The position numbers and the translations under genes are program-made. From a virus, in the IMG/VR virus record IMGVR_UViG_3300010412_000079, positions 1-46,550 of that record: 46,550 nucleotides of DNA; one strand, given 5' to 3'. This document shows positions 1-46,550 of the stretch, piece after piece (the stretch's first letter is position 1; each line of letters opens with the position of its first letter). The notes beneath the pieces are model-generated. The model was not told where the DNA came from and did not search any database. It saw only the letters and a list, made by a program, of their open reading frames with translations.

Positions 1-144
1 CACTTACCACTCAACCACATGGAGACGAAATGAAAAGTCTGCCCGCCTTGCTGTTTGCCCTGCTAATCGCCGTACTGATTGCCCCGATATCCGCACACGA
101 CGAACTGGTTGGCATGGAGACCATGGAGACCATGGAGACCATGG
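1..144. repeat. Direct terminal repeat, left copy
   Basis: Bases 1-144 are identical to 46407-46550, the last 144 bases of the window. The copy covers the leader and first 38 codons of the gene at 30 and ends inside its ATGGAGACC tandem repeat. The simplest reading is the overlap left when a circular or circularly permuted genome is written as a linear contig. A PBSX-type large terminase, which fits headful packaging, agrees with that. A true short terminal repeat cannot be excluded from sequence alone. Confidence 0.9.
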
Positions 145-404
145 AGACCATGGAGACCATGGTGGCTGCGGTGCCGCTCGCGTTCACCACCCAATTTGCC
201 CTCGCTGAGGCCACGGCAGCCACTGGAGCCACGGCAGCCACTGGAGCCACGGCAGCCACGGCAGCCACTGGAGCCACGGCAGCCACTGGTTACCGTGTGG
301 AGTGGCTGGTCAACAACATAATGGTGGCTGCCGCTAACTACACCCTGTCTCAGCTCGCCAGTGGTATCACGACCCGGCCGTTGACAGTAACCCCCGGGAG
401 CTAG
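30..404 (+). CDS. Secreted low-complexity repeat protein with signal peptide
   Basis: This is a 124-residue protein of unknown function. Residues 1-22 form a clear Sec signal peptide: a Lys near the start, a Leu/Ala/Ile-rich core, and ISA before a likely cleavage site. There is no lipobox Cys. Mature residues 29-43 are five Met-Glu-Thr repeats, and about residues 61-87 are Ala/Thr/Gly repeats with a six-residue period. A normal-looking tail of about 35 residues follows. GGAG lies six bases before the ATG. The gene has its own promoter (-10 at 46384-46389 in the repeated copy) and a terminator at 526-556, so it is a single-gene unit. The promoter resembles the one before the small terminase gene, so late expression is inferred. 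It could be a periplasmic or envelope protein acting in lysis or superinfection exclusion; neither is shown. Confidence 0.75.
   Translation: MKSLPALLFALLIAVLIAPISAHDELVGMETMETMETMETMETMVAAVPLAFTTQFALAEATAATGATAATGATAATAATGATAATGYRVEWLVNNIMVAAANYTLSQLASGITTRPLTVTPGS
114..158 (+). repeat. Five tandem 9-bp ATGGAGACC units
   Basis: Five perfect copies encode Met-Glu-Thr. The repeat is in frame, so copy-number change would not break the gene. The window's right end falls in the fourth unit of the duplicate copy. Confidence 0.95.
210..290 (+). repeat. 18-bp tandem repeat GCCACGGCAGCCACTGGA
   Basis: Near-perfect 18-bp units encode Ala-Thr-Ala-Ala-Thr-Gly, with one internal unit shortened to 9 bp. 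The near-identity at DNA level suggests recent slippage expansion. Confidence 0.9.
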
Positions 405-7109: not shown

Positions 7110-7138
7110 CTTAGTTGGTGCACGGGGCACCAACTAAG
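7110..7138 (+). other. Hairpin at the predicted 5' end of the modification operon
   Basis: A perfect 12-bp stem (CTTAGTTGGTGC with its complement) has an ACGGG loop. It begins where transcription from the promoter at 7071 should start, so the mRNA would begin with the stem. The same ACGGG loop caps the hairpin at 14454. No U tract is present. Confidence 0.8.
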
Positions 7139-7156
7139 TAGACCGGGGATACCATC

Positions 7157-8023
7157 ATGTCAAACACCTTTTACGTTGTCACCCTTGGTGGCAAGAAACA
7201 AGAGGCCGCGCTTGTTGCCGTAGGTTACAGCCTGGAACACGCCAGTGAGTTCGGCGAGTACAGTTTGGAGGTCCCTTACGTGGTATTATCAAGTGCTAAA
7301 GACACGGCCGCCCTGTTGAGGGGGACCGAGATACATACCATCCATAAGCAGCTATTCGGTACCGGTATGGGTAACGACACCAAGACTGGCTTGGCCAACA
7401 AGCTGTTTCCCAAGATGCAGGACTGGTATCAAGAAATGGTGGATGGCTCTGGAGACGGGCTCGAAAAGAAGGGTATCGTTGACCTGGACATATGGGCGCT
7501 GGGTCGAGTGCTGGAGGCCGCGCAGGTGGAGGCCGCGCAGGTGGAGGCCACGCAGGTGGAGGCCACGCAGGTTGAGGCCACGCAGGTGGAGGCCACGCAG
7601 GTGGAGGCCGCGCAGGTGGAGGCCACGCAGGTGGAGGCCACGCAGGTGGAGGCCACGCAGGTGGAGGCCACCATAACCAGTATGTCGTCGTGCGAGGTCA
7701 CCTATGGGTATGACTTCACCCGGTATGCACCATCTGCAGCGGCGGACAAGACTAGCGGAGCAAAGAAGCCACGCACCCCCAAGGAAAAGAAGGAGCGGCG
7801 CCCCAGTGTCAAACAGCGAATCCGCGGCATGCTGGTAAAAGGCTACCGGGTCCGGCCGTCAGACTTCCCAGATAACGCGTTCAACACGGTGAAAAGCCAA
7901 GCCAACTACCTGCGTTATCCAAGCTTGTGCGGTGATGGTGGCCCCATCAATGTACAACAGGGCACAGACGCACAGGGGGTGTTCTGGTACCTTCCGGATA
8001 CCGCACACAGGGGTGGCGAGTAG
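7157..8023 (+). CDS. Unknown protein with a ten-unit Glu-Ala-Thr-Gln-Val repeat
   Basis: The protein has 288 residues in three parts. Residues 1-119 are a globular domain I do not recognise. Residues 120-172 are ten tandem five-residue Glu-Ala-(Ala/Thr)-Gln-Val units, probably one long helix. Residues about 195-288 begin with a Lys/Arg-rich stretch and continue as a compact, possibly DNA-binding domain. It is the first gene after the promoter at 7071 and precedes queD, so it may belong to the 7-deazaguanine or replication operon. No catalytic motif is visible. Confidence 0.8.
   Translation: MSNTFYVVTLGGKKQEAALVAVGYSLEHASEFGEYSLEVPYVVLSSAKDTAALLRGTEIHTIHKQLFGTGMGNDTKTGLANKLFPKMQDWYQEMVDGSGDGLEKKGIVDLDIWALGRVLEAAQVEAAQVEATQVEATQVEATQVEATQVEAAQVEATQVEATQVEATQVEATITSMSSCEVTYGYDFTRYAPSAAADKTSGAKKPRTPKEKKERRPSVKQRIRGMLVKGYRVRPSDFPDNAFNTVKSQANYLRYPSLCGDGGPINVQQGTDAQGVFWYLPDTAHRGGE
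7514..7672 (+). repeat. 15-bp tandem repeat GAGGCCACGCAGGTG, ten units plus partial
   Basis: Ten near-identical units with only GCG/ACG alternation and one GTT for GTG encode Glu-Ala-(Ala/Thr)-Gln-Val. The repeat preserves frame and joins the two globular parts of the protein. Confidence 0.95.
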
Positions 8024-8042
8024 CCAACTACCCCAACTACCT

Positions 8043-8066
8043 GGGGGGCGGTTGTAGCCGCCCCCC
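8043..8066 (+). other. Intercistronic GC-rich hairpin before queD
   Basis: GGGGGGCGG pairs perfectly with CCGCCCCCC around TTGTAG. There is no U tract. It lies 32 bp before the queD start. Confidence 0.75.
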
Positions 8067-8097
8067 AAGCAACAACCACAACATCGGAGACATTACT

Positions 8098-8589
8098 ATG
8101 ATCACTATCACAAAGAAACTTACCACTGAAACCAGTCACCGTCTCACTAACCACCATGGCAAGTGTGCACACTTGCACGGACACACTTACCGGTGGGAAG
8201 TGGAACTCACGTGCCAGGATGGGGACGATGGTCTGGACGTCAGAGGTATGGTGGTGGATTTCTCGGACTTGAAGTACGCCATGAAAAATGTCATTGGCGA
8301 GTACGATCACGCCCTCCTGCTGCACGACCAAGACACTGCAGCCGAGGTTCTGTCGTCAATGGCCGCCACTAACGGTTCTGCCCAAAACGTGGTCATATTA
8401 CCGTTCAACCCTACTGCCGAGAACCTCGCCAAGCACGCCGGGGAGCGTTTGCAGTCCTGGGTTAACTCCCACTTTGAACACTTCTCCATCAAAAACGTGT
8501 ATACTATTACGCGTGTCACCGTGTGTGAAACCGAGTCGAGTTGTGCAACTTGGACACCGGGTGACACGCACAACCAGGCGCAAGCCTAA
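8098..8589 (+). CDS. queD: 6-carboxy-tetrahydropterin synthase
   Basis: This 163-residue protein is a QueD/6-pyruvoyl-tetrahydropterin synthase homologue. The family converts dihydroneopterin triphosphate to 6-carboxy-tetrahydropterin, the step before QueE. The zinc ligands are His14, His27 and His29 (HLHGHTY), Cys23 is the expected catalytic thiol, and Asp70-His71 (EYDHALL) and PTAEN match family motifs. A GGAG Shine-Dalgarno precedes the ATG. No FolE is present, so the substrate must come from host GTP cyclohydrolase. It sits with queE and the DpdA-like gene, pointing to a DNA-modification pathway. Confidence 0.9.
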   Translation: MITITKKLTTETSHRLTNHHGKCAHLHGHTYRWEVELTCQDGDDGLDVRGMVVDFSDLKYAMKNVIGEYDHALLLHDQDTAAEVLSSMAATNGSAQNVVILPFNPTAENLAKHAGERLQSWVNSHFEHFSIKNVYTITRVTVCETESSCATWTPGDTHNQAQA

Positions 8590-8635
8590 TTCACAGCAAC
8601 AACCGGGCATTAACCCTGCTACAAGGAGAAATCAC

Positions 8636-8935
8636 ATGACACAGCAAGAGCTCGATTTTGGCCTGATGACCACCACTATGGTTCGCACCCCGGATGGCCT
8701 GATGTTTGACAGCGCCGAGGCCGCCCGTGCGCACATGGTCGCCCTTGCCAGCGAGGACGAGATCAACGCGTATCTGGCCCAGAGCTCGCACAACCCGCGG
8801 GCATACACCCGCGCGAGCCGGACCATTAAGAGCTGGTTGGCTTGGAAGGCCAACGGTAGCCCCGGGTTGGCCGAGGCAAAGGCAGCAAAGGAAGCTGAGG
8901 AAGCGCAGAAAGCAAACGACGAGGGCGGCAGCTAA
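8636..8935 (+). CDS. Small unknown protein between queD and queE
   Basis: The product is 99 residues with AAGGAG before the ATG. The N-terminal part is acidic; the middle has a helical Arg/Lys segment (about 58-80); the C-terminal 25 residues are an Ala/Glu/Lys low-complexity helix. I do not recognise the family. Its place inside the 7-deazaguanine cluster makes an accessory role possible. Confidence 0.75.
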   Translation: MTQQELDFGLMTTTMVRTPDGLMFDSAEAARAHMVALASEDEINAYLAQSSHNPRAYTRASRTIKSWLAWKANGSPGLAEAKAAKEAEEAQKANDEGGS

Positions 8936-8955
8936 CCGGCGTAGTTAGCACACAT

Positions 8956-8973
8956 CCACGCATATCTGCGTGG
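8956..8973 (+). other. Hairpin, first of two before queE
   Basis: CCACGCA pairs with TGCGTGG around TATC. It is followed by TCTCCTT, so weak terminator activity is possible, but there is no true U run. Confidence 0.65.
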
Positions 8974-8981
8974 GTCTCCTT

Positions 8982-9006
8982 ACAGAGCGCCCTAGTGGCG
9001 CTCTGT
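8982..9006 (+). other. Hairpin, second of two before queE
   Basis: A perfect 10-bp stem (ACAGAGCGCC with GGCGCTCTGT) has a CTAGT loop. It ends 18 bp before the queE start and just ahead of its GGGGG Shine-Dalgarno. Confidence 0.8.
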
Positions 9007-9024
9007 CAACTTAGGGGGTACGAA

Positions 9025-9762
9025 ATGACAAAGCTAGTAGTGAAGCGGGTGTTCAGAACCATGCAAGGGGAGGGTCCGTTCGCTGGGCAACAAGCAGTGT
9101 TTGTGCGCTTGGCTGCTTGTCCGTTGAGGTGTTTCTGGTGCGACACAGACTTCAGCCTTGTTGGTAGTATGCGGGTACGCTGGTTTGATTTGTTGCAGGA
9201 GGTGGAAACACTTGCCCGCCCTATGTGTAATCTGTGTGTAATCACGGGCGGTGAACCCCTGGTGCAACCGATAGCCCAGTTCTGTGCCGCACTGCTAAGG
9301 ATTGGTATGCGGGTGCAGGTAGAGACCAGTGGCATCCTGCACCAAGATCTTCCAGAAGAGGTTGACGTAGTGGTAAGCCCCAAGACACAGCGGGTACTTT
9401 ATAGGGGACCGGTGCGTGCTTGGAAGTATATTATTAGAGCCGGGGAAACCGCCCCACCACTAGAGTTGGCGGAACGGCCCGAGTACGTCTATGACGGGTT
9501 GCCCTACTACAGCACACAGCGCAAGGGTACCTACAGCAGGTTAGCAAGGCCCTGGGACTCGCACATGGGTCAGACTACAAGACTGGAAGGGCATATTCCA
9601 CTCGCTGATCGGCGCACGGTGTATGTGCAACCCTGCGATGAGGAGATACTTGGCGGTGGGTCAGCAGACAATCAGCTCAACATGCTCGAATGCCTAAACT
9701 CGGCGCGTCAGTTTGGTTACACCCTCGGCCTACAACTCCATAAAATCGCAGGGGTAGAATAA
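9025..9762 (+). CDS. queE: 7-carboxy-7-deazaguanine synthase (radical SAM)
   Basis: The protein has 245 residues. QueE enzymes use a 4Fe-4S cluster and S-adenosylmethionine to turn 6-carboxy-tetrahydropterin into 7-carboxy-7-deazaguanine (CDG). The cluster motif is C-x3-C-x2-C at Cys32, Cys36 and Cys39, with QGEGP at 14-18 and GGEP at 75-78. Length and motif order are typical. ATG 9025 is chosen because a GGGGG Shine-Dalgarno precedes it; the frame upstream has no good start. No QueC is encoded, so the chain stops at CDG unless host QueC completes preQ0. Confidence 0.93.
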   Translation: MTKLVVKRVFRTMQGEGPFAGQQAVFVRLAACPLRCFWCDTDFSLVGSMRVRWFDLLQEVETLARPMCNLCVITGGEPLVQPIAQFCAALLRIGMRVQVETSGILHQDLPEEVDVVVSPKTQRVLYRGPVRAWKYIIRAGETAPPLELAERPEYVYDGLPYYSTQRKGTYSRLARPWDSHMGQTTRLEGHIPLADRRTVYVQPCDEEILGGGSADNQLNMLECLNSARQFGYTLGLQLHKIAGVE

Positions 9763-9920
9763 TGAACAAAAAATACGTGCAAGCGCGTCACCTGTGTATG
9801 GAGTCAAGGGGTATGTGCAAATATTGGCACAGCACCGTTACCAACGCCCTGCGTGGGGTGTTGACCGAAAATGCTGCATCTCGAACTGAATTTCTTTCGC
9901 TGGCCAATACAAAGGGGTGA
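9762..9920 (+). CDS. Small 52-residue protein coupled to queE
   Basis: The ATG overlaps the queE stop as TAATG, so it is probably translated by re-initiation. The preceding AGGGGTAGAA in queE is its Shine-Dalgarno. The protein is basic with two Cys and many Arg/His/Lys residues in its first half. The next gene's GTG starts four bases after its stop. Function unknown. Confidence 0.6.
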   Translation: MNKKYVQARHLCMESRGMCKYWHSTVTNALRGVLTENAASRTEFLSLANTKG

Positions 9921-9923
9921 ACT

Positions 9924-10106
9924 GTGGACAAGTGGCAAGAAGTGTATGAGGACATGGTGCATGCGTGTATCGGCATGGAAAGCCAGCTAAACACGTGGGA
10001 GCATGGATTCTTGCAGAGCTTAATCGAACAGCTCTCCACGGGCAGGCAGCCGAGCGAAAAGCAAGTTAGAAAACTGGAGAGCATTCATGAACGGCTCTAC
10101 CGTTAA
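9924..10106 (+). CDS. Small helical protein, 60 residues
   Basis: GTG start with AAAGGGG seven bases upstream. The protein is predicted to be all helical, with TWEHGFLQSL in the middle and a charged C-terminal helix. It resembles short phage proteins of unknown function seen near nucleotide-metabolism genes, but I cannot name a family. Its 3' end overlaps the next gene by 20 bp. Confidence 0.65.
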   Translation: MDKWQEVYEDMVHACIGMESQLNTWEHGFLQSLIEQLSTGRQPSEKQVRKLESIHERLYR

Positions 10107-10350
10107 GCAACCACCCACCCGCGATGAGGTGGAACGAGCGTTCTTGGCCGACCTGCGTGCGCTGCTGGTCAAGTATGGTAGTCATACTGCGTTGGATGCC
10201 GATAACTACTACCAAGGATACGCTGAGTGTGGTCAAGACATAAGAATGACTGTTACCATTGAAGCTAAATACGACAAATATAATAACATGGTGTCTCCAA
10301 TGGTTTTAATAGACCTCGGCGAGTACTTCACTGCCGAGACAGACAGATAA
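10087..10350 (+). CDS. Unknown 87-residue protein before the DpdA-like gene
   Basis: The N-terminal 35 residues look helical; the rest is a compact, beta-rich acidic segment with several Tyr. It overlaps the preceding gene and is followed by a hairpin. No recognised motif. Position suggests it is part of the modification and replication operon. Confidence 0.7.
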   Translation: MNGSTVKQPPTRDEVERAFLADLRALLVKYGSHTALDADNYYQGYAECGQDIRMTVTIEAKYDKYNNMVSPMVLIDLGEYFTAETDR

Positions 10351-10359
10351 GCAGCAACC

Positions 10360-10377
10360 ACCGCCCTCCGGGGCGGT
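10360..10377 (+). other. Hairpin before the DpdA-like gene
   Basis: ACCGCCC pairs with GGGCGGT around TCCG. No U tract. It lies 19 bp before the chosen start of the DpdA-like gene. Confidence 0.7.
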
Positions 10378-10396
10378 CAACATGATTGGAGGTCGT

Positions 10397-11338
10397 ATGG
10401 ACGTCTACTTTTCGGGTGTAGGCAGGGGGATAAGCTGCACTGGTGCGTTACTGTACGAGCAGTTAGCAGCCGAGGTACCTTGCAAGCTCAATTCGTGTCA
10501 CGGCAAGTATATGGCCGAGGCTGTCCTGTGGGGTAACGTAGTGCCTGAGACCGGCAAAGAAGGCAGGAAGCTGATGCTTGACTCCGGTGCCTTCACTGCG
10601 TGGTCCCTAGGCAGTGAGGCTACCTTAGAGGACCTGTTGCCCCGCTACCAGCGAATTCTTTCCTTGTGCGAGCACAAGTTTGGCGAGGTGTGGATGATTA
10701 ACTTAGACGTGATCCCGGGGCGCCGGAGGGGTCCACCACCCACTCCAAGCGAGATACAACAAGCACTGGACACCAGCGACGCTAACTACGAAAAACTCCG
10801 AGGAGAGCTAGGCGACCGGGTGATCCCGGTTTACCATTTGGGCGAAGACGGGCAGCGGTTTGATTACCTAGCCAGTATTAGCCACTACGTGTGCGTAGCA
10901 CCAGGTCAAGATATAAACCAGACCACCCGTGTTAGGTGGTCTCGCGAAACGGTCAACGGGGCTGGTGTTCGCACACACGGGTTAGCAGCCACGGGCGATA
11001 CCATGCTGCGAACTATAACGTGGCACAGCGTGGATAGCTCCGCGTGGCTAGTGTCATCTGGGAAAGGTGATATTATGCTGCATGACGGCGAAAAACTACA
11101 TGAAGTAGCCATAAGCAACGAAAGTCCGCGTCGCAAGAAAATGGACCGACACTATACCAACATGACCAAGCCAGAGCAGCAGCGCATTGACCAGATGCTG
11201 GCTAGTTATGGGTTCACACCCGATCAAGCAGCCACTGATTACATGGTGCGCCGCTACGTGTGCATGAAGGAAACCTTGCGGTGGGTAAATAGCATGGATG
11301 TTCAACCGGTGCATGAATTGGGGTTATTCGCACTATGA
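10397..11338 (+). CDS. dpdA: DpdA-like 7-deazaguanine DNA transglycosylase
   Basis: The 313-residue protein looks like a member of the tRNA-guanine transglycosylase superfamily of the phage DpdA type, which exchanges guanine in DNA for a 7-deazaguanine base. Supporting motifs are LDSGAF with Asp62, NLD at 102-104, HGLAATG at 194-200 and SVDSSAW with Asp213; the two Asp are the expected catalytic pair. It lacks the Cys-zinc C-terminus of bacterial TGT, which fits a DNA rather than tRNA substrate. ATG 10397 is preferred over 10382 because GGAGG lies between them. It shares an operon with queD and queE and overlaps the clamp-like gene by four bases. The exact DpdA subfamily is uncertain. Confidence 0.82.
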   Translation: MDVYFSGVGRGISCTGALLYEQLAAEVPCKLNSCHGKYMAEAVLWGNVVPETGKEGRKLMLDSGAFTAWSLGSEATLEDLLPRYQRILSLCEHKFGEVWMINLDVIPGRRRGPPPTPSEIQQALDTSDANYEKLRGELGDRVIPVYHLGEDGQRFDYLASISHYVCVAPGQDINQTTRVRWSRETVNGAGVRTHGLAATGDTMLRTITWHSVDSSAWLVSSGKGDIMLHDGEKLHEVAISNESPRRKKMDRHYTNMTKPEQQRIDQMLASYGFTPDQAATDYMVRRYVCMKETLRWVNSMDVQPVHELGLFAL

Positions 11339-12333
11339 AACAACAACTCGCATTCGTCCGAGGTGCACTAGCCAAGAAAGACTTGGTGCCCGTACTAAAC
11401 CACTTCCATATATACAACGGCAGGATACAAGGTGGCAACGGTAGGTTGAGCATAGACACCCCCTGTGAAGAGTTAGCGGGGCTGAATGTTACCGTCCCAG
11501 GCGAGCGTTTCCTGCGTGCTATTGATGCCTGTGACGGCGAGCCAACCTTCAAGGTCACAGAGGCCAACAGCTTAATGGTTAAGCGTGGTCGGCTGAACAT
11601 ACGTCTACCACTGCTCCCTCAGGATAGTTATCCACGCGCTCAACTGAGCGACGCGGGGGAGCGCATTCAAACAACCGGATCTTTGTTAGGCGTCTTGCGT
11701 GCGCTTGAACCGTTCATTGGTGATGACGCGAGCCGCCCCTGGTCGTGTGGGGTATTACTCAAAGGTGGTTACGCTTACGCTACCAACAACATATCCTTGG
11801 TTAGGATTGAGTGCCCTTACACCAACCCGGACCAGGAAATAGTTCTACCCTCCTACACCATTGATGAGCTATTACGCATTAGCCAGGAACCCACCTGGAT
11901 CAGCATACCAACCAACCAACACAGTATAGTGTTCGGCTATTCCAGTGGTGCGTGGTTGCAAAGCCTGTTAATTGACCTGCGTTGGCCCGACGTTGACAAA
12001 CGACTAACCACACAAAGCACCGAACAAGCGGTCACTGGCGTTGACCTAAAGACACTGACAGCAGCCATACAAAAAATCTCGCCGTTCTGCAGCGACAAGC
12101 ATAACCCAGTGGTGCTATTGAGCGAGCAGGGGGTGTCTACGGTAGAGGCTGCTACATGGGCGGAGGTGGGTGGATTAGCGCTACCGCAAGCCAAGTTCAG
12201 AGCTGACACCCTGTTGCCAGTGCTGGCAGTGTCTCATACTGTTGACTTCTCGTTTTGGCCTAGGCCGTGCCCGTTTGCCAGCAGCGACCTTATTGGTATC
12301 ATCGTTGGAGTACGTGACAATGTCGCGGGCTGA
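11335..12333 (+). CDS. DNA sliding-clamp-like protein (DnaN type)
   Basis: The product is 332 residues, a little shorter than bacterial beta clamp (about 366). The strand-helix pattern, a conserved-looking VTVPGERFLRAIDAC segment at about 50-65, and later repeats of the same fold fit the three-domain clamp. It would encircle DNA and hold the polymerase. Its ATG overlaps the DpdA-like stop (ATGA) and its end overlaps the polymerase start by 14 bp, so the three are translationally linked. No clamp-loader genes are visible; host loader would be needed. Assignment rests on fold-level similarity. Confidence 0.7.
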   Translation: MKQQLAFVRGALAKKDLVPVLNHFHIYNGRIQGGNGRLSIDTPCEELAGLNVTVPGERFLRAIDACDGEPTFKVTEANSLMVKRGRLNIRLPLLPQDSYPRAQLSDAGERIQTTGSLLGVLRALEPFIGDDASRPWSCGVLLKGGYAYATNNISLVRIECPYTNPDQEIVLPSYTIDELLRISQEPTWISIPTNQHSIVFGYSSGAWLQSLLIDLRWPDVDKRLTTQSTEQAVTGVDLKTLTAAIQKISPFCSDKHNPVVLLSEQGVSTVEAATWAEVGGLALPQAKFRADTLLPVLAVSHTVDFSFWPRPCPFASSDLIGIIVGVRDNVAG

Positions 12334-14371
12334 TGCGGTAGGTATGTTCTGGCAGGATTTCGCTGTCGCGCGTGAAACCAAACAGCAGCGAGCACGCGCC
12401 GACCTCACCATGCCGAGCATCCCAGACACCGGGTGGCGCCCACCCACTAGCTTCCCAAGGTTGGAAGCTGCGAAGGCGCTGAGCATTGACGTTGAGACCC
12501 GGGACAAAGGGTTAGAGCAGGGGTTAGGCCCTGGTTGGTGCTTTCCAGACGGCGGCTACCTGGTGGGTATTTCAGTCTGTACGCACGACGGGTACAGGTG
12601 GTACTTTCCAATGCGCCATGAGGTGGGTGGCGGTAACTTGAATCCTGCTGCGGTACTGGCTTGGGCAAAGGACGAGTTCGGTAGGGAAAACCAACCAAAG
12701 ATAGGGGCGCAACTACTGTATGACTTGGGGTGGTTATTAGCGGAGGGGGTTACAGTACGCGGCGAACTGCATGATGCGCAGTACGCCGAGCCCTTATTAG
12801 ACGAGCATGCTCGCAGCTACTCGCTAGGGGCGCTATCCGAGCGGTATGCTTTAACGGTGAAGGGTAAGGGCGAGGCCGAGGAGTCGCTATACCAGTGGCT
12901 GTCTATGGCGTATGGTGGAGAACCTACCCGCAGGGCGCAAGCCGGTAACATTTATCGGTCCCCCGTTGCATTAGCCGGCCCCTACGCCGAGCAGGACGCG
13001 GTATTACCGTTTCACCTAGTGCGCAAGCAGATCAAGCATCTCAAGGAACAGGGGTTGTATGACCTTTATCGTATGGAATGCGACCTGATACCAGTGTACC
13101 TCGCAATGCGCCTTGCTGGTATACGCGTTGACCACGAGGAGGCACAGCGTACAGCCGATCGGTTTGAGCGCGAAGAGCGCGAGTGGTATACCAAACTAGG
13201 ACCGGGTGCAAATGTCAACTCCGTTGACTGGTTGCAACGTGCATTTGATAAGGAGGGGATAGTGTACCCACGCACGGCACCCAGCAAGGCGCACCCACAG
13301 GGTAGAGCCAGCTTTACTGACCTGTTCCTGCAGAACGCTCCTGGTGACTTACCAGCAGCCATCCGAGCTATACGCAGGTTACAGAAAGCACGTGGCACGT
13401 TCCTAGATGGGTATATCCTGAACAAACACCGGGATGGGTATGTACACGGCGAGTTCCACCCACTACGTTCTGACCACAGCGGCACCATTAGCGGGCGGTT
13501 GAGTAGCTCAAACCCAAACCTACAGAACATACCAGCACGCGATCCCGAAATGAAACAGTGTGTTCGTGGCTTGTTTGTGCCGGACACAAAAGACAGCTAC
13601 ATCTTTGCACCTGACTACAGCCAAATTGAGTACAGACTCATGGTCGGTAAGGCTGTTGGACCGGGTGCCGAAGAAGCACGCCAGAACTACAGAAACAACC
13701 CAGACACTGATTACCATCGATATGTACAACAACGGGTCAAGGACCTGCTAGGGATTGAACTACCGCGAAAACCCATTAAGAATATAAACTTCGGGATTAT
13801 ATTCGGGATGGGAGAAGCTAAGCTGCGTGCAATGTTGGGGTTGGATGAAGCAGCGGCGAGTCAGTTCTTTGACGCGTATCACGCAGGTGTACCGTTCGCA
13901 CGCCCCACCCGCGAGGCTGCTACCAAAGCAGCCGACCGACGCGGGTACATCACAACCGTACTTGGTAGGAGGGCGCGTTTCCCACACTGGGAAACCAAGG
14001 ATTGGAAGCAGTCACGCAAGGATGGGTGGTTCCTGTATGACCAAGCGGCGGAGAAGTACGGCCCATATGCAATTCGGCGTGCACGCACACATAAGGCGTT
14101 GAACGCATACACGCAAGGGTCGGGTGGGGACATACTTAAAAAGGCGATGTTGCTGTGCTGGCGCGAGCTGGGGCTGGCACCTCGTATAAACGTGCATGAC
14201 GAGCTGGTGTTTGTGCTACCACGTGGGGCAGTGGGTGCAAGTAACGAGGCGGATATTGTGAGGATTATGGCCGGTGCAGTGGACATAGGGGTCCCCTTGC
14301 TGGTTAGCTCCCAGCGTGGGGAAAGCTGGGGGGCCGTGTCCGAGAAGGGTACACTGCCAGGTATGTGCTGA
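12320..14371 (+). CDS. Family A DNA polymerase with 3'-5' exonuclease domain
   Basis: The 683-residue replicative polymerase has a DEDD-type exonuclease motif DxE at 57-59. Its polymerase motif A is DYSQIEYRL starting at Asp432, motif B is near 480-495 (RKPIKNINFG then FGMGEAK), and motif C is HDE at 626-628. ATG 12320 is chosen over an upstream in-frame ATG (12242) because GGAG lies ten bases before it and the longer version would overlap the clamp gene by 92 bp. It is the last gene of the operon that starts at 7157. A polymerase made beside DpdA-like and clamp-like proteins suggests the modification is applied to newly replicated phage DNA. Confidence 0.95.
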   Translation: MSRADAVGMFWQDFAVARETKQQRARADLTMPSIPDTGWRPPTSFPRLEAAKALSIDVETRDKGLEQGLGPGWCFPDGGYLVGISVCTHDGYRWYFPMRHEVGGGNLNPAAVLAWAKDEFGRENQPKIGAQLLYDLGWLLAEGVTVRGELHDAQYAEPLLDEHARSYSLGALSERYALTVKGKGEAEESLYQWLSMAYGGEPTRRAQAGNIYRSPVALAGPYAEQDAVLPFHLVRKQIKHLKEQGLYDLYRMECDLIPVYLAMRLAGIRVDHEEAQRTADRFEREEREWYTKLGPGANVNSVDWLQRAFDKEGIVYPRTAPSKAHPQGRASFTDLFLQNAPGDLPAAIRAIRRLQKARGTFLDGYILNKHRDGYVHGEFHPLRSDHSGTISGRLSSSNPNLQNIPARDPEMKQCVRGLFVPDTKDSYIFAPDYSQIEYRLMVGKAVGPGAEEARQNYRNNPDTDYHRYVQQRVKDLLGIELPRKPIKNINFGIIFGMGEAKLRAMLGLDEAAASQFFDAYHAGVPFARPTREAATKAADRRGYITTVLGRRARFPHWETKDWKQSRKDGWFLYDQAAEKYGPYAIRRARTHKALNAYTQGSGGDILKKAMLLCWRELGLAPRINVHDELVFVLPRGAVGASNEADIVRIMAGAVDIGVPLLVSSQRGESWGAVSEKGTLPGMC

Positions 14372-46406: not shown

Positions 46407-46550
46407 CACTTACCACTCAACCACATGGAGACGAAATGAAAAGTCTGCCCGCCTTGCTGTTTGCCCTGCTAATCGCCGTACTGATTGCCCCGATATCCGC
46501 ACACGACGAACTGGTTGGCATGGAGACCATGGAGACCATGGAGACCATGG
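46407..46550. repeat. Direct terminal repeat, right copy
   Basis: Identical to bases 1-144. It ends within the ATGGAGACC tandem repeat, so the last gene is cut. Confidence 0.9.
46436..46550 (+). CDS. Secreted repeat protein, partial second copy
   Basis: The first 38 codons of the gene at 30-404, including the signal peptide and three Met-Glu-Thr units. Most likely the same gene seen again across the circular join, not a true second copy. Confidence 0.85.
   Translation, partial: MKSLPALLFALLIAVLIAPISAHDELVGMETMETMETM

What the first reader, a model, noticed from the sequence alone, without database searches (positions are those of the whole stretch)
7157..14371. 7-deazaguanine DNA-modification genes in one operon with clamp and polymerase, stopping at CDG
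QueD, QueE and a DpdA-like transglycosylase are seen with their key residues. QueC and FolE are absent. From pathway knowledge QueE makes CDG, so the phage either inserts CDG itself or relies on host QueC to make preQ0. The DpdA-like gene overlaps the clamp-like gene, which overlaps the polymerase gene, suggesting modification is tied to new phage DNA. The unknown genes at 7157, 8636, 9762, 9924 and 10087 in the same operon are candidates for additional steps.
Basis: partly seen in the sequence, partly recalled or inferred. Interest (0 to 1): 0.78.

Follow-up and report, generated by a model that had tools for sequence, protein, structure and literature searches.

The report
Phage DNA-modification operon with gutted folE
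This phage carries a recognisable set of genes for swapping guanine in its DNA for a 7-deazaguanine base, but it has lost the last synthesis gene (queC) and the inside of the first one (folE), so it must borrow a host enzyme and probably ends with an unusual base; this is a trimmed version of a known system.

Summary
The operon is real. QueD (8098-8589), QueE (9025-9762), DpdA (10397-11338), sliding clamp and PolA are confirmed; the first three keep nearly all positions conserved across ~130 relatives. The DpdA model (pLDDT 90.5) has tRNA-guanine transglycosylase as its best PDB match. QueC is absent from the whole record. FolE is not simply absent: the 'unknown' gene at 9762 is folE with most of its interior missing in frame. 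It keeps the start codon overlapping the queE stop and the last ~47 codons, but lacks residues needed for catalysis. No other folE seen in over 150 related loci is truncated like this. Clustering with clamp and polymerase is the ordinary layout of this phage group. Genes 8636, 9924 and 10087 have no detectable relatives and are not supported as pathway steps. Best reading: a complete preQ0-DNA pathway was pruned, host FolE supplies the first step, and phage QueD and QueE make CDG. Direct CDG insertion (about 0.5) is somewhat favoured over preQ0 made by host QueC (about 0.3). QueC-less relatives exist: Mycobacterium phage Bipper and at least three other lineages, two with a methyltransferase beside dpdA. 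New variant of a known kind; moderate interest.

The parts
7157..8023 (+). first gene after a 12-bp hairpin (7110-7138); 288 aa with a 15-bp tandem repeat (7512-7671); function unknown
   Evidence: ORF; no significant Pfam, PHROG or phage match; partial match only in L088 E=6.6e-12; repeat
8098..8589 (+). queD, 6-carboxytetrahydropterin synthase
   Evidence: PF01242 E=9.6e-29; TIGR03367 QueD E=4.5e-25; 12 of 12 columns conserved in >=95% of 127 relatives kept
8636..8935 (+). orphan ORF, 99 aa, unknown
   Evidence: no significant match in Pfam or PHROGs, none in phage records or 246 related loci
9025..9762 (+). queE, radical-SAM 7-carboxy-7-deazaguanine (CDG) synthase
   Evidence: phrog_2076 E=1.2e-34; TIGR04349 QueE E=3.3e-23; 30 of 31 columns conserved in >=95% of 129 relatives kept
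9762..9920 (+). folE remnant: own ATG overlapping the queE stop (TAATG), ~5 codons, then the C-terminal ~47 codons; ~138 interior codons missing in frame
   Evidence: PF01227 136-178/179 E=2.9e-8; PDB FolE E=3.8e-6; 63.6% identical to Me-ZS1 FolE 145-187; junction comparison; only PF01227 match in record
9924..10106 (+). orphan ORF, 60 aa, GTG start, unknown
   Evidence: no significant family match; no relative in related loci
10087..10350 (+). orphan ORF, 87 aa, unknown
   Evidence: no significant family match; no phage match
10397..11338 (+). dpdA, DNA-guanine transglycosylase (TGT superfamily)
   Evidence: phrog_887 E=5.8e-41; model pLDDT 90.5; best PDB match TGT 2pwu E=2.1e-5; 20 of 20 columns conserved in >=95% of 142 relatives kept
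11335..12333 (+). DNA polymerase sliding clamp (processivity factor)
   Evidence: phrog_947 E=6e-51
12320..14371 (+). family A DNA polymerase
   Evidence: PF00476 E=1.8e-54; 45-46% identical to Bhz54, S0112 and Me-ZS1 polymerases

Best explanation
The operon is a pruned 7-deazaguanine DNA-modification pathway of the DpdA type. An ancestor carried queC, queD, queE, folE, dpdA, clamp and polA, as the nearest DpdA relatives L114 and L012 still do. This phage lost queC and most of the inside of folE. Host FolE, present in most bacteria for folate, supplies dihydroneopterin triphosphate (inferred). Phage QueD and QueE convert it to CDG (homology). DpdA exchanges guanines in phage DNA for a 7-deazaguanine base (homology and fold). 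The base inserted is most likely CDG itself, giving dCDG (inferred, about 0.5). The alternative is preQ0 made from phage CDG by host QueC (about 0.3). The purpose is protection from host restriction (established for CAjan). The folE remnant is an inactive relic; it is still open and may be translated.
For: QueD, QueE and DpdA keep 12/12, 30/31 and 20/20 strongly conserved columns. QueC, FolE2, QueF and the preQ0 transporter YhhQ are absent from the record. FolE C-terminus identified; in nearly all of the 18 other loci where queE directly precedes folE, the queE stop overlaps or abuts the folE start, as in the window, so the remnant keeps folE's own start and its own end. L114 has queC-queD-queE-folE-dpdA-clamp-polA, the same order plus queC, and with L012 is the nearest row to the window in the DpdA tree. 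QueC-less operons with intact QueD, QueE and DpdA recur: Bipper, L046/L074, L121/L143, L161. Bipper's host group lacks all queuosine genes (PMC6884629), so Bipper cannot get preQ0 that way, and those authors propose CDG for it. Retaining QueD and QueE while losing QueC makes most sense if CDG is the useful product (inference).
Against: The window's nearest DpdA relatives all have QueC, so its DpdA descends from enzymes presumably using preQ0. The host is unknown; a queuosine-making host would have QueC. No base analysis exists. The loss could be so recent that the pathway no longer works in this particular phage. The contig is one metagenomic assembly; a population with intact folE cannot be excluded.
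Confidence: 0.5

Rival explanations
1. The phage inserts preQ0 (or its amide, ADG): its QueD and QueE boost CDG, and the host's QueC completes preQ0. queC and folE were lost because the host supplies both.
For: DpdA groups with DpdAs of QueC-carrying phages. Host participation is documented: phages 7-11 and MED16 encode dpdA only and yet carry dADG (PMC6884629, PMC8306585).
Against: Phages that rely wholly on the host in those studies show very low levels (traces to ~0.1% of G), and a host with QueC would normally have QueD and QueE too, so keeping those two alone is odd.
Confidence: 0.3
2. The pathway is decaying: after loss of queC and of the inside of folE little or no modification is made, and queD, queE and dpdA are relics still intact.
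For: One gene is already broken and one lost; this folE truncation was not seen in any other related locus.
Against: QueD, QueE and DpdA keep essentially every strongly conserved position, and even the folE remnant keeps 9 of 9 positions conserved in >=90% of relatives, so decay, if any, is very recent.
Confidence: 0.15
3. The 52-aa folE product is a working microprotein, for example one that joins host FolE decamers and alters their activity.
For: Open frame with Shine-Dalgarno and start, embedded in the operon; conserved positions retained.
Against: No other phage seen here has such a short form; a recent in-frame deletion explains it without function.
Confidence: 0.05

Closest known systems
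Mycobacterium phage Bipper dpdA-queD-queE-folE operon (KU728633)
   Same: QueD, QueE and DpdA present, QueC absent from the whole record; proposed to carry CDG (PMC6884629)
   Different: Bipper keeps full-length FolE (208 aa) and its operon is not joined to clamp and polA
Stenotrophomonas phage Bhz54, Microcystis phage Me-ZS1, Shewanella phage S0112 operons
   Same: queE/queD/folE-dpdA-clamp-polA layout; polymerase 45-46% identical
   Different: All carry queC and full-length folE; their DpdA is only 24-27% identical to the window's
Nanhaivirus DpdA (Dinoroseobacter R26L, Pseudanabaena Pan1)
   Same: Closest named DpdA, 41-42% identity over ~200 aa; primase-helicase-x-queD gene order upstream
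   Different: They carry queC, folE and queF, predicted preQ1 type
E. coli phage CAjan preQ0 system
   Same: DpdA homologue essential for insertion and restriction resistance in CAjan (PMC6884629; tblastn E=4e-13)
   Different: CAjan has the full FolE-QueD-QueE-QueC set and carries dPreQ0
dCDG and dDG in phages (Cui et al. 2023, Nucleic Acids Res., gkad657; not held, recalled from memory)
   Same: Reports 7-carboxy-7-deazaguanine in phage DNA, the base predicted here

Membership tests
Phage DpdA (DNA-guanine transglycosylase) | TGT-superfamily fold | tested here: met
   AlphaFold2 model pLDDT 90.5; best PDB match TGT 2pwu E=2.1e-5, TM 0.55; viral matches with informative names are queuine/queuosine tRNA-ribosyltransferases
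Phage DpdA (DNA-guanine transglycosylase) | Conserved catalytic aspartates (DSGAF and S-x-DS motifs) | tested here: met
   D62, S63, G64, A65, F66 and S211, D213, S214 invariant in 31 sequences
Phage DpdA (DNA-guanine transglycosylase) | Inserts a 7-deazaguanine base into DNA | not testable with these tools
   needs LC-MS or an enzyme assay
preQ0 DNA-modification pathway (FolE-QueD-QueE-QueC-DpdA) | QueC present | tested here: not met
   no PF06508 match in the record; no trace by tblastn with Me-ZS1 QueC
preQ0 DNA-modification pathway (FolE-QueD-QueE-QueC-DpdA) | Functional FolE present | tested here: not met
   only the C-terminal ~47 residues remain
preQ0 DNA-modification pathway (FolE-QueD-QueE-QueC-DpdA) | QueD and QueE with conserved residues | tested here: met
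   12/12 and 30/31 conserved columns kept
GTP cyclohydrolase I (FolE) - ORF 9762-9920 | Homology to PF01227 above the curated cut-off | tested here: met
   33.8 bits against cut-off 27
GTP cyclohydrolase I (FolE) - ORF 9762-9920 | Full catalytic domain with Cys-x-His-His zinc/catalytic motif | tested here: not met
   positions 1-135 of the Pfam model are absent; residue roles from general knowledge of E. coli FolE

The most novel reading that the evidence does not exclude
The phage has pruned a preQ0 pathway at both ends to a two-enzyme CDG module fed by host FolE, and its DpdA, descended from preQ0-type enzymes, now inserts CDG directly, so that dCDG replaces part of the guanine in its DNA.
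Probability: 0.42. Interest if true: 0.45.

Novelty: new variant of a known kind. Interest (0 to 1): 0.4.

Why it matters
If CDG is the end product, the operon shows how a phage changes its final DNA base by losing genes rather than gaining them, and gives a natural test of which 7-deazaguanine a DpdA accepts. It adds another independent QueC loss to several seen here. In two of the other lineages a methyltransferase gene sits beside dpdA, which points to CDG-derived bases that can be sought directly. It also warns that 'unknown' small genes in such operons can be remnants of pathway genes.

Tried and rejected
FolE or QueC encoded elsewhere or split: rejected; tblastn with Me-ZS1 proteins and Pfam scans of the whole record find only the FolE C-terminus. 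FolE2, QueF and YhhQ in the record: none. A riboswitch or other Rfam RNA: none. tRNAs: none. Gene 7157 as a member of the conserved C-terminal-domain proteins found upstream of queE in relatives: iterative profile search did not recruit any window ORF. Methyltransferase next to dpdA as in L121/L143/L161: not present in the window. Close relatives in IMG/VR by single-protein search with DpdA or PolA: none, so selection on the folE remnant could not be tested with near relatives. Host: capsid, terminase and portal point only loosely to phages of Gram-negative hosts, and the search of bacterial genomes gave one weak hit; host not assigned. PDB sequence search with the DpdA profile found no relative; the fold search did. 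L159 looked QueC-less but its contig is cut and its sister L156 has QueC, so it is not counted. L017, L023, L043, L098 and L141 looked QueC-less with my seed profile but carry divergent QueC by Pfam.
Full report
What was checked. The window is a 46,550-base virus record with a 144-base direct terminal repeat, so it is probably a complete genome. ORFs, sequence and family scans confirm QueD at 8098-8589, QueE at 9025-9762, DpdA at 10397-11338, a sliding clamp at 11335-12333 and PolA at 12320-14371, all on the + strand with short gaps or overlaps. The DpdA is related by sequence to CAjan DpdA (E=4e-13), the enzyme shown to be essential for base insertion (PMC6884629).

Enzyme integrity. Across ~130 to 140 related loci, the window keeps 12 of 12 strongly conserved QueD columns, 30 of 31 QueE columns and 20 of 20 DpdA columns. 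An AlphaFold2 model of DpdA built from 31 aligned relatives has mean pLDDT 90.5. Its best match in the PDB is tRNA-guanine transglycosylase (2pwu, E=2.1e-5), and the leading viral matches with informative names are queuine/queuosine tRNA-ribosyltransferases. Sequence search alone did not connect it to solved TGTs.

FolE. The ORF 9762-9920 encodes MNKKYVQARHLCMESRGMCKYWHSTVTNALRGVLTENAASRTEFLSLANTKG. Residues 6-48 match the last 43 positions of the 179-position GTP cyclohydrolase I model (E=2.9e-8, above the cut-off), solved FolE structures and phage FolEs; 98 phage records match over at least 80% of it (as BLAST counts coverage, joined places). It is 63.6% identical to the end of Me-ZS1 FolE. 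Nothing else in the record matches FolE. In nearly all of the 18 other loci where queE directly precedes folE, the folE start overlaps or abuts the queE stop codon; the window has the same kind of junction (TAATG). The simplest history is an internal, in-frame deletion of about 138 codons in folE. The remnant keeps 9 of 9 positions conserved in at least 90% of relatives and scores within the range of intact FolEs (26 of 87 score lower), so the deletion is recent or the piece is still constrained. It cannot be an active cyclohydrolase, because the region that carries the first zinc Cys and the His-His pair is gone (residue roles from general knowledge of E. coli FolE).

QueC. No QueC match exists in the record, nor a trace by tblastn. 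FolE2, QueF and YhhQ are also absent.

Comparative layout. Searches with DpdA and PolA alignments brought 160 rows of related loci from IMG/VR. Mapped with profiles, queE/queC/queD/folE followed by dpdA, clamp and polA is the common layout; in 153 of 167 distinct dpdA loci the next recognised gene is the clamp. The clamp and polymerase overlap is therefore inherited group architecture. Two folE genes besides the window's gave short profile spans, but these are intact genes interrupted by inteins, so the window's truncated folE is the only one of its kind among 158 distinct dpdA loci with a folE match. A further search with the FolE C-terminus brought 79 new loci, none of them truncated. The nearest rows to the window in the DpdA tree are L012 and L114, both with queC; the window's branch is long and its place not firm. 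L114 has the order queC-queD-queE-folE-dpdA-clamp-polA, the window's order plus queC.

QueC-less relatives. A whole-record Pfam search shows no QueC in L045/L046, L074, L121, L143 and L161 (several of these contigs may be incomplete) and none in Mycobacterium phage Bipper. Bipper keeps queD, queE, folE and dpdA, its host group has none of the queuosine genes, and the authors who listed it suggested CDG as its base. In the DpdA tree the metagenomic cases fall in at least three separate places, so QueC loss has happened repeatedly.

Unknown genes. 8636, 9924 and 10087 have no relatives in the 246 related loci; 8636 and 10087 also have none in the phage collection. 7157 has one partial match (L088, E=6.6e-12) and none in the phage collection. 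They are lineage-specific, and there is no positive evidence that they carry out chemical steps.

Mechanism. Shown: the genes present, their intact conserved residues, the predicted fold of DpdA, the absence of QueC and the broken folE. From established pathway knowledge: FolE, QueD and QueE lead from GTP to CDG, and QueC turns CDG into preQ0 (PMC13329287). Inferred: host FolE supplies the first step; DpdA inserts CDG (about 0.5) or preQ0 made by host QueC (about 0.3); little or no modification is made (about 0.15). The argument for CDG is that a phage needing preQ0 would gain little by keeping QueD and QueE but not QueC, since hosts with QueC normally have the other two as well; phages that relied on hosts in published work carried only low levels (0.02% of G in 7-11; low levels also in MED16, PMC8306585). 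The argument against is that this DpdA's nearest relatives come with QueC.

Known background. Phage DNA with preQ0, preQ1, ADG and archaeosine is published (PMC6884629, PMC8306585). dCDG and dDG in phages were, as recalled from the abstract of Cui et al. 2023 (not held here), also reported; so ending at CDG would not be a new base. The finding is a new variant of a known kind, not a new kind.

Noticed in passing
L121:7237-7890, L143:5039-5617, L161:7544-8134: A Methyltransf_23-type methyltransferase (the L161 copy by profile from the other two) sits directly upstream of dpdA in these QueC-less operons; elsewhere only a marginal match (L015, E=2e-4) was found. L161 lies in a different DpdA clade from L121/L143, which suggests that QueC loss with this gene arose twice and that a CDG-derived methylated base may exist. 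The L143 protein has no match in 50,697 phage records.
   Followed up: partly
L045, L046 and L074, upstream of queD: QueC-less operons that instead carry a PAPS-reductase-type PP-loop protein, a PIG-L-like protein and a family 1 glycosyltransferase, possibly a hypermodification branch.
   Followed up: partly
L122:5185-6933 and L013:5460-6863: folE genes carrying an intein (PF14890 E=3e-14 and 9e-13) placed just before the active-site Cys-Glu-His-His, in two distant phage lineages.
   Followed up: partly
window 7512-7671: 15-bp tandem repeat, 10.7 copies, coding for VEATQ-type repeats inside gene 7157; it also keeps other frames open.
   Followed up: no
window 7110-7138, 8042-8067, 8955-9005: Strong hairpins between operon genes (fold z-scores about -3 to -3.5); no T-run on the + strand, so not simple terminators of this operon.
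   Followed up: partly
window 1-162 and 46407-46550: 144-bp terminal repeat that ends in a 9-bp tandem repeat (CATGGAGAC)n.
   Followed up: no
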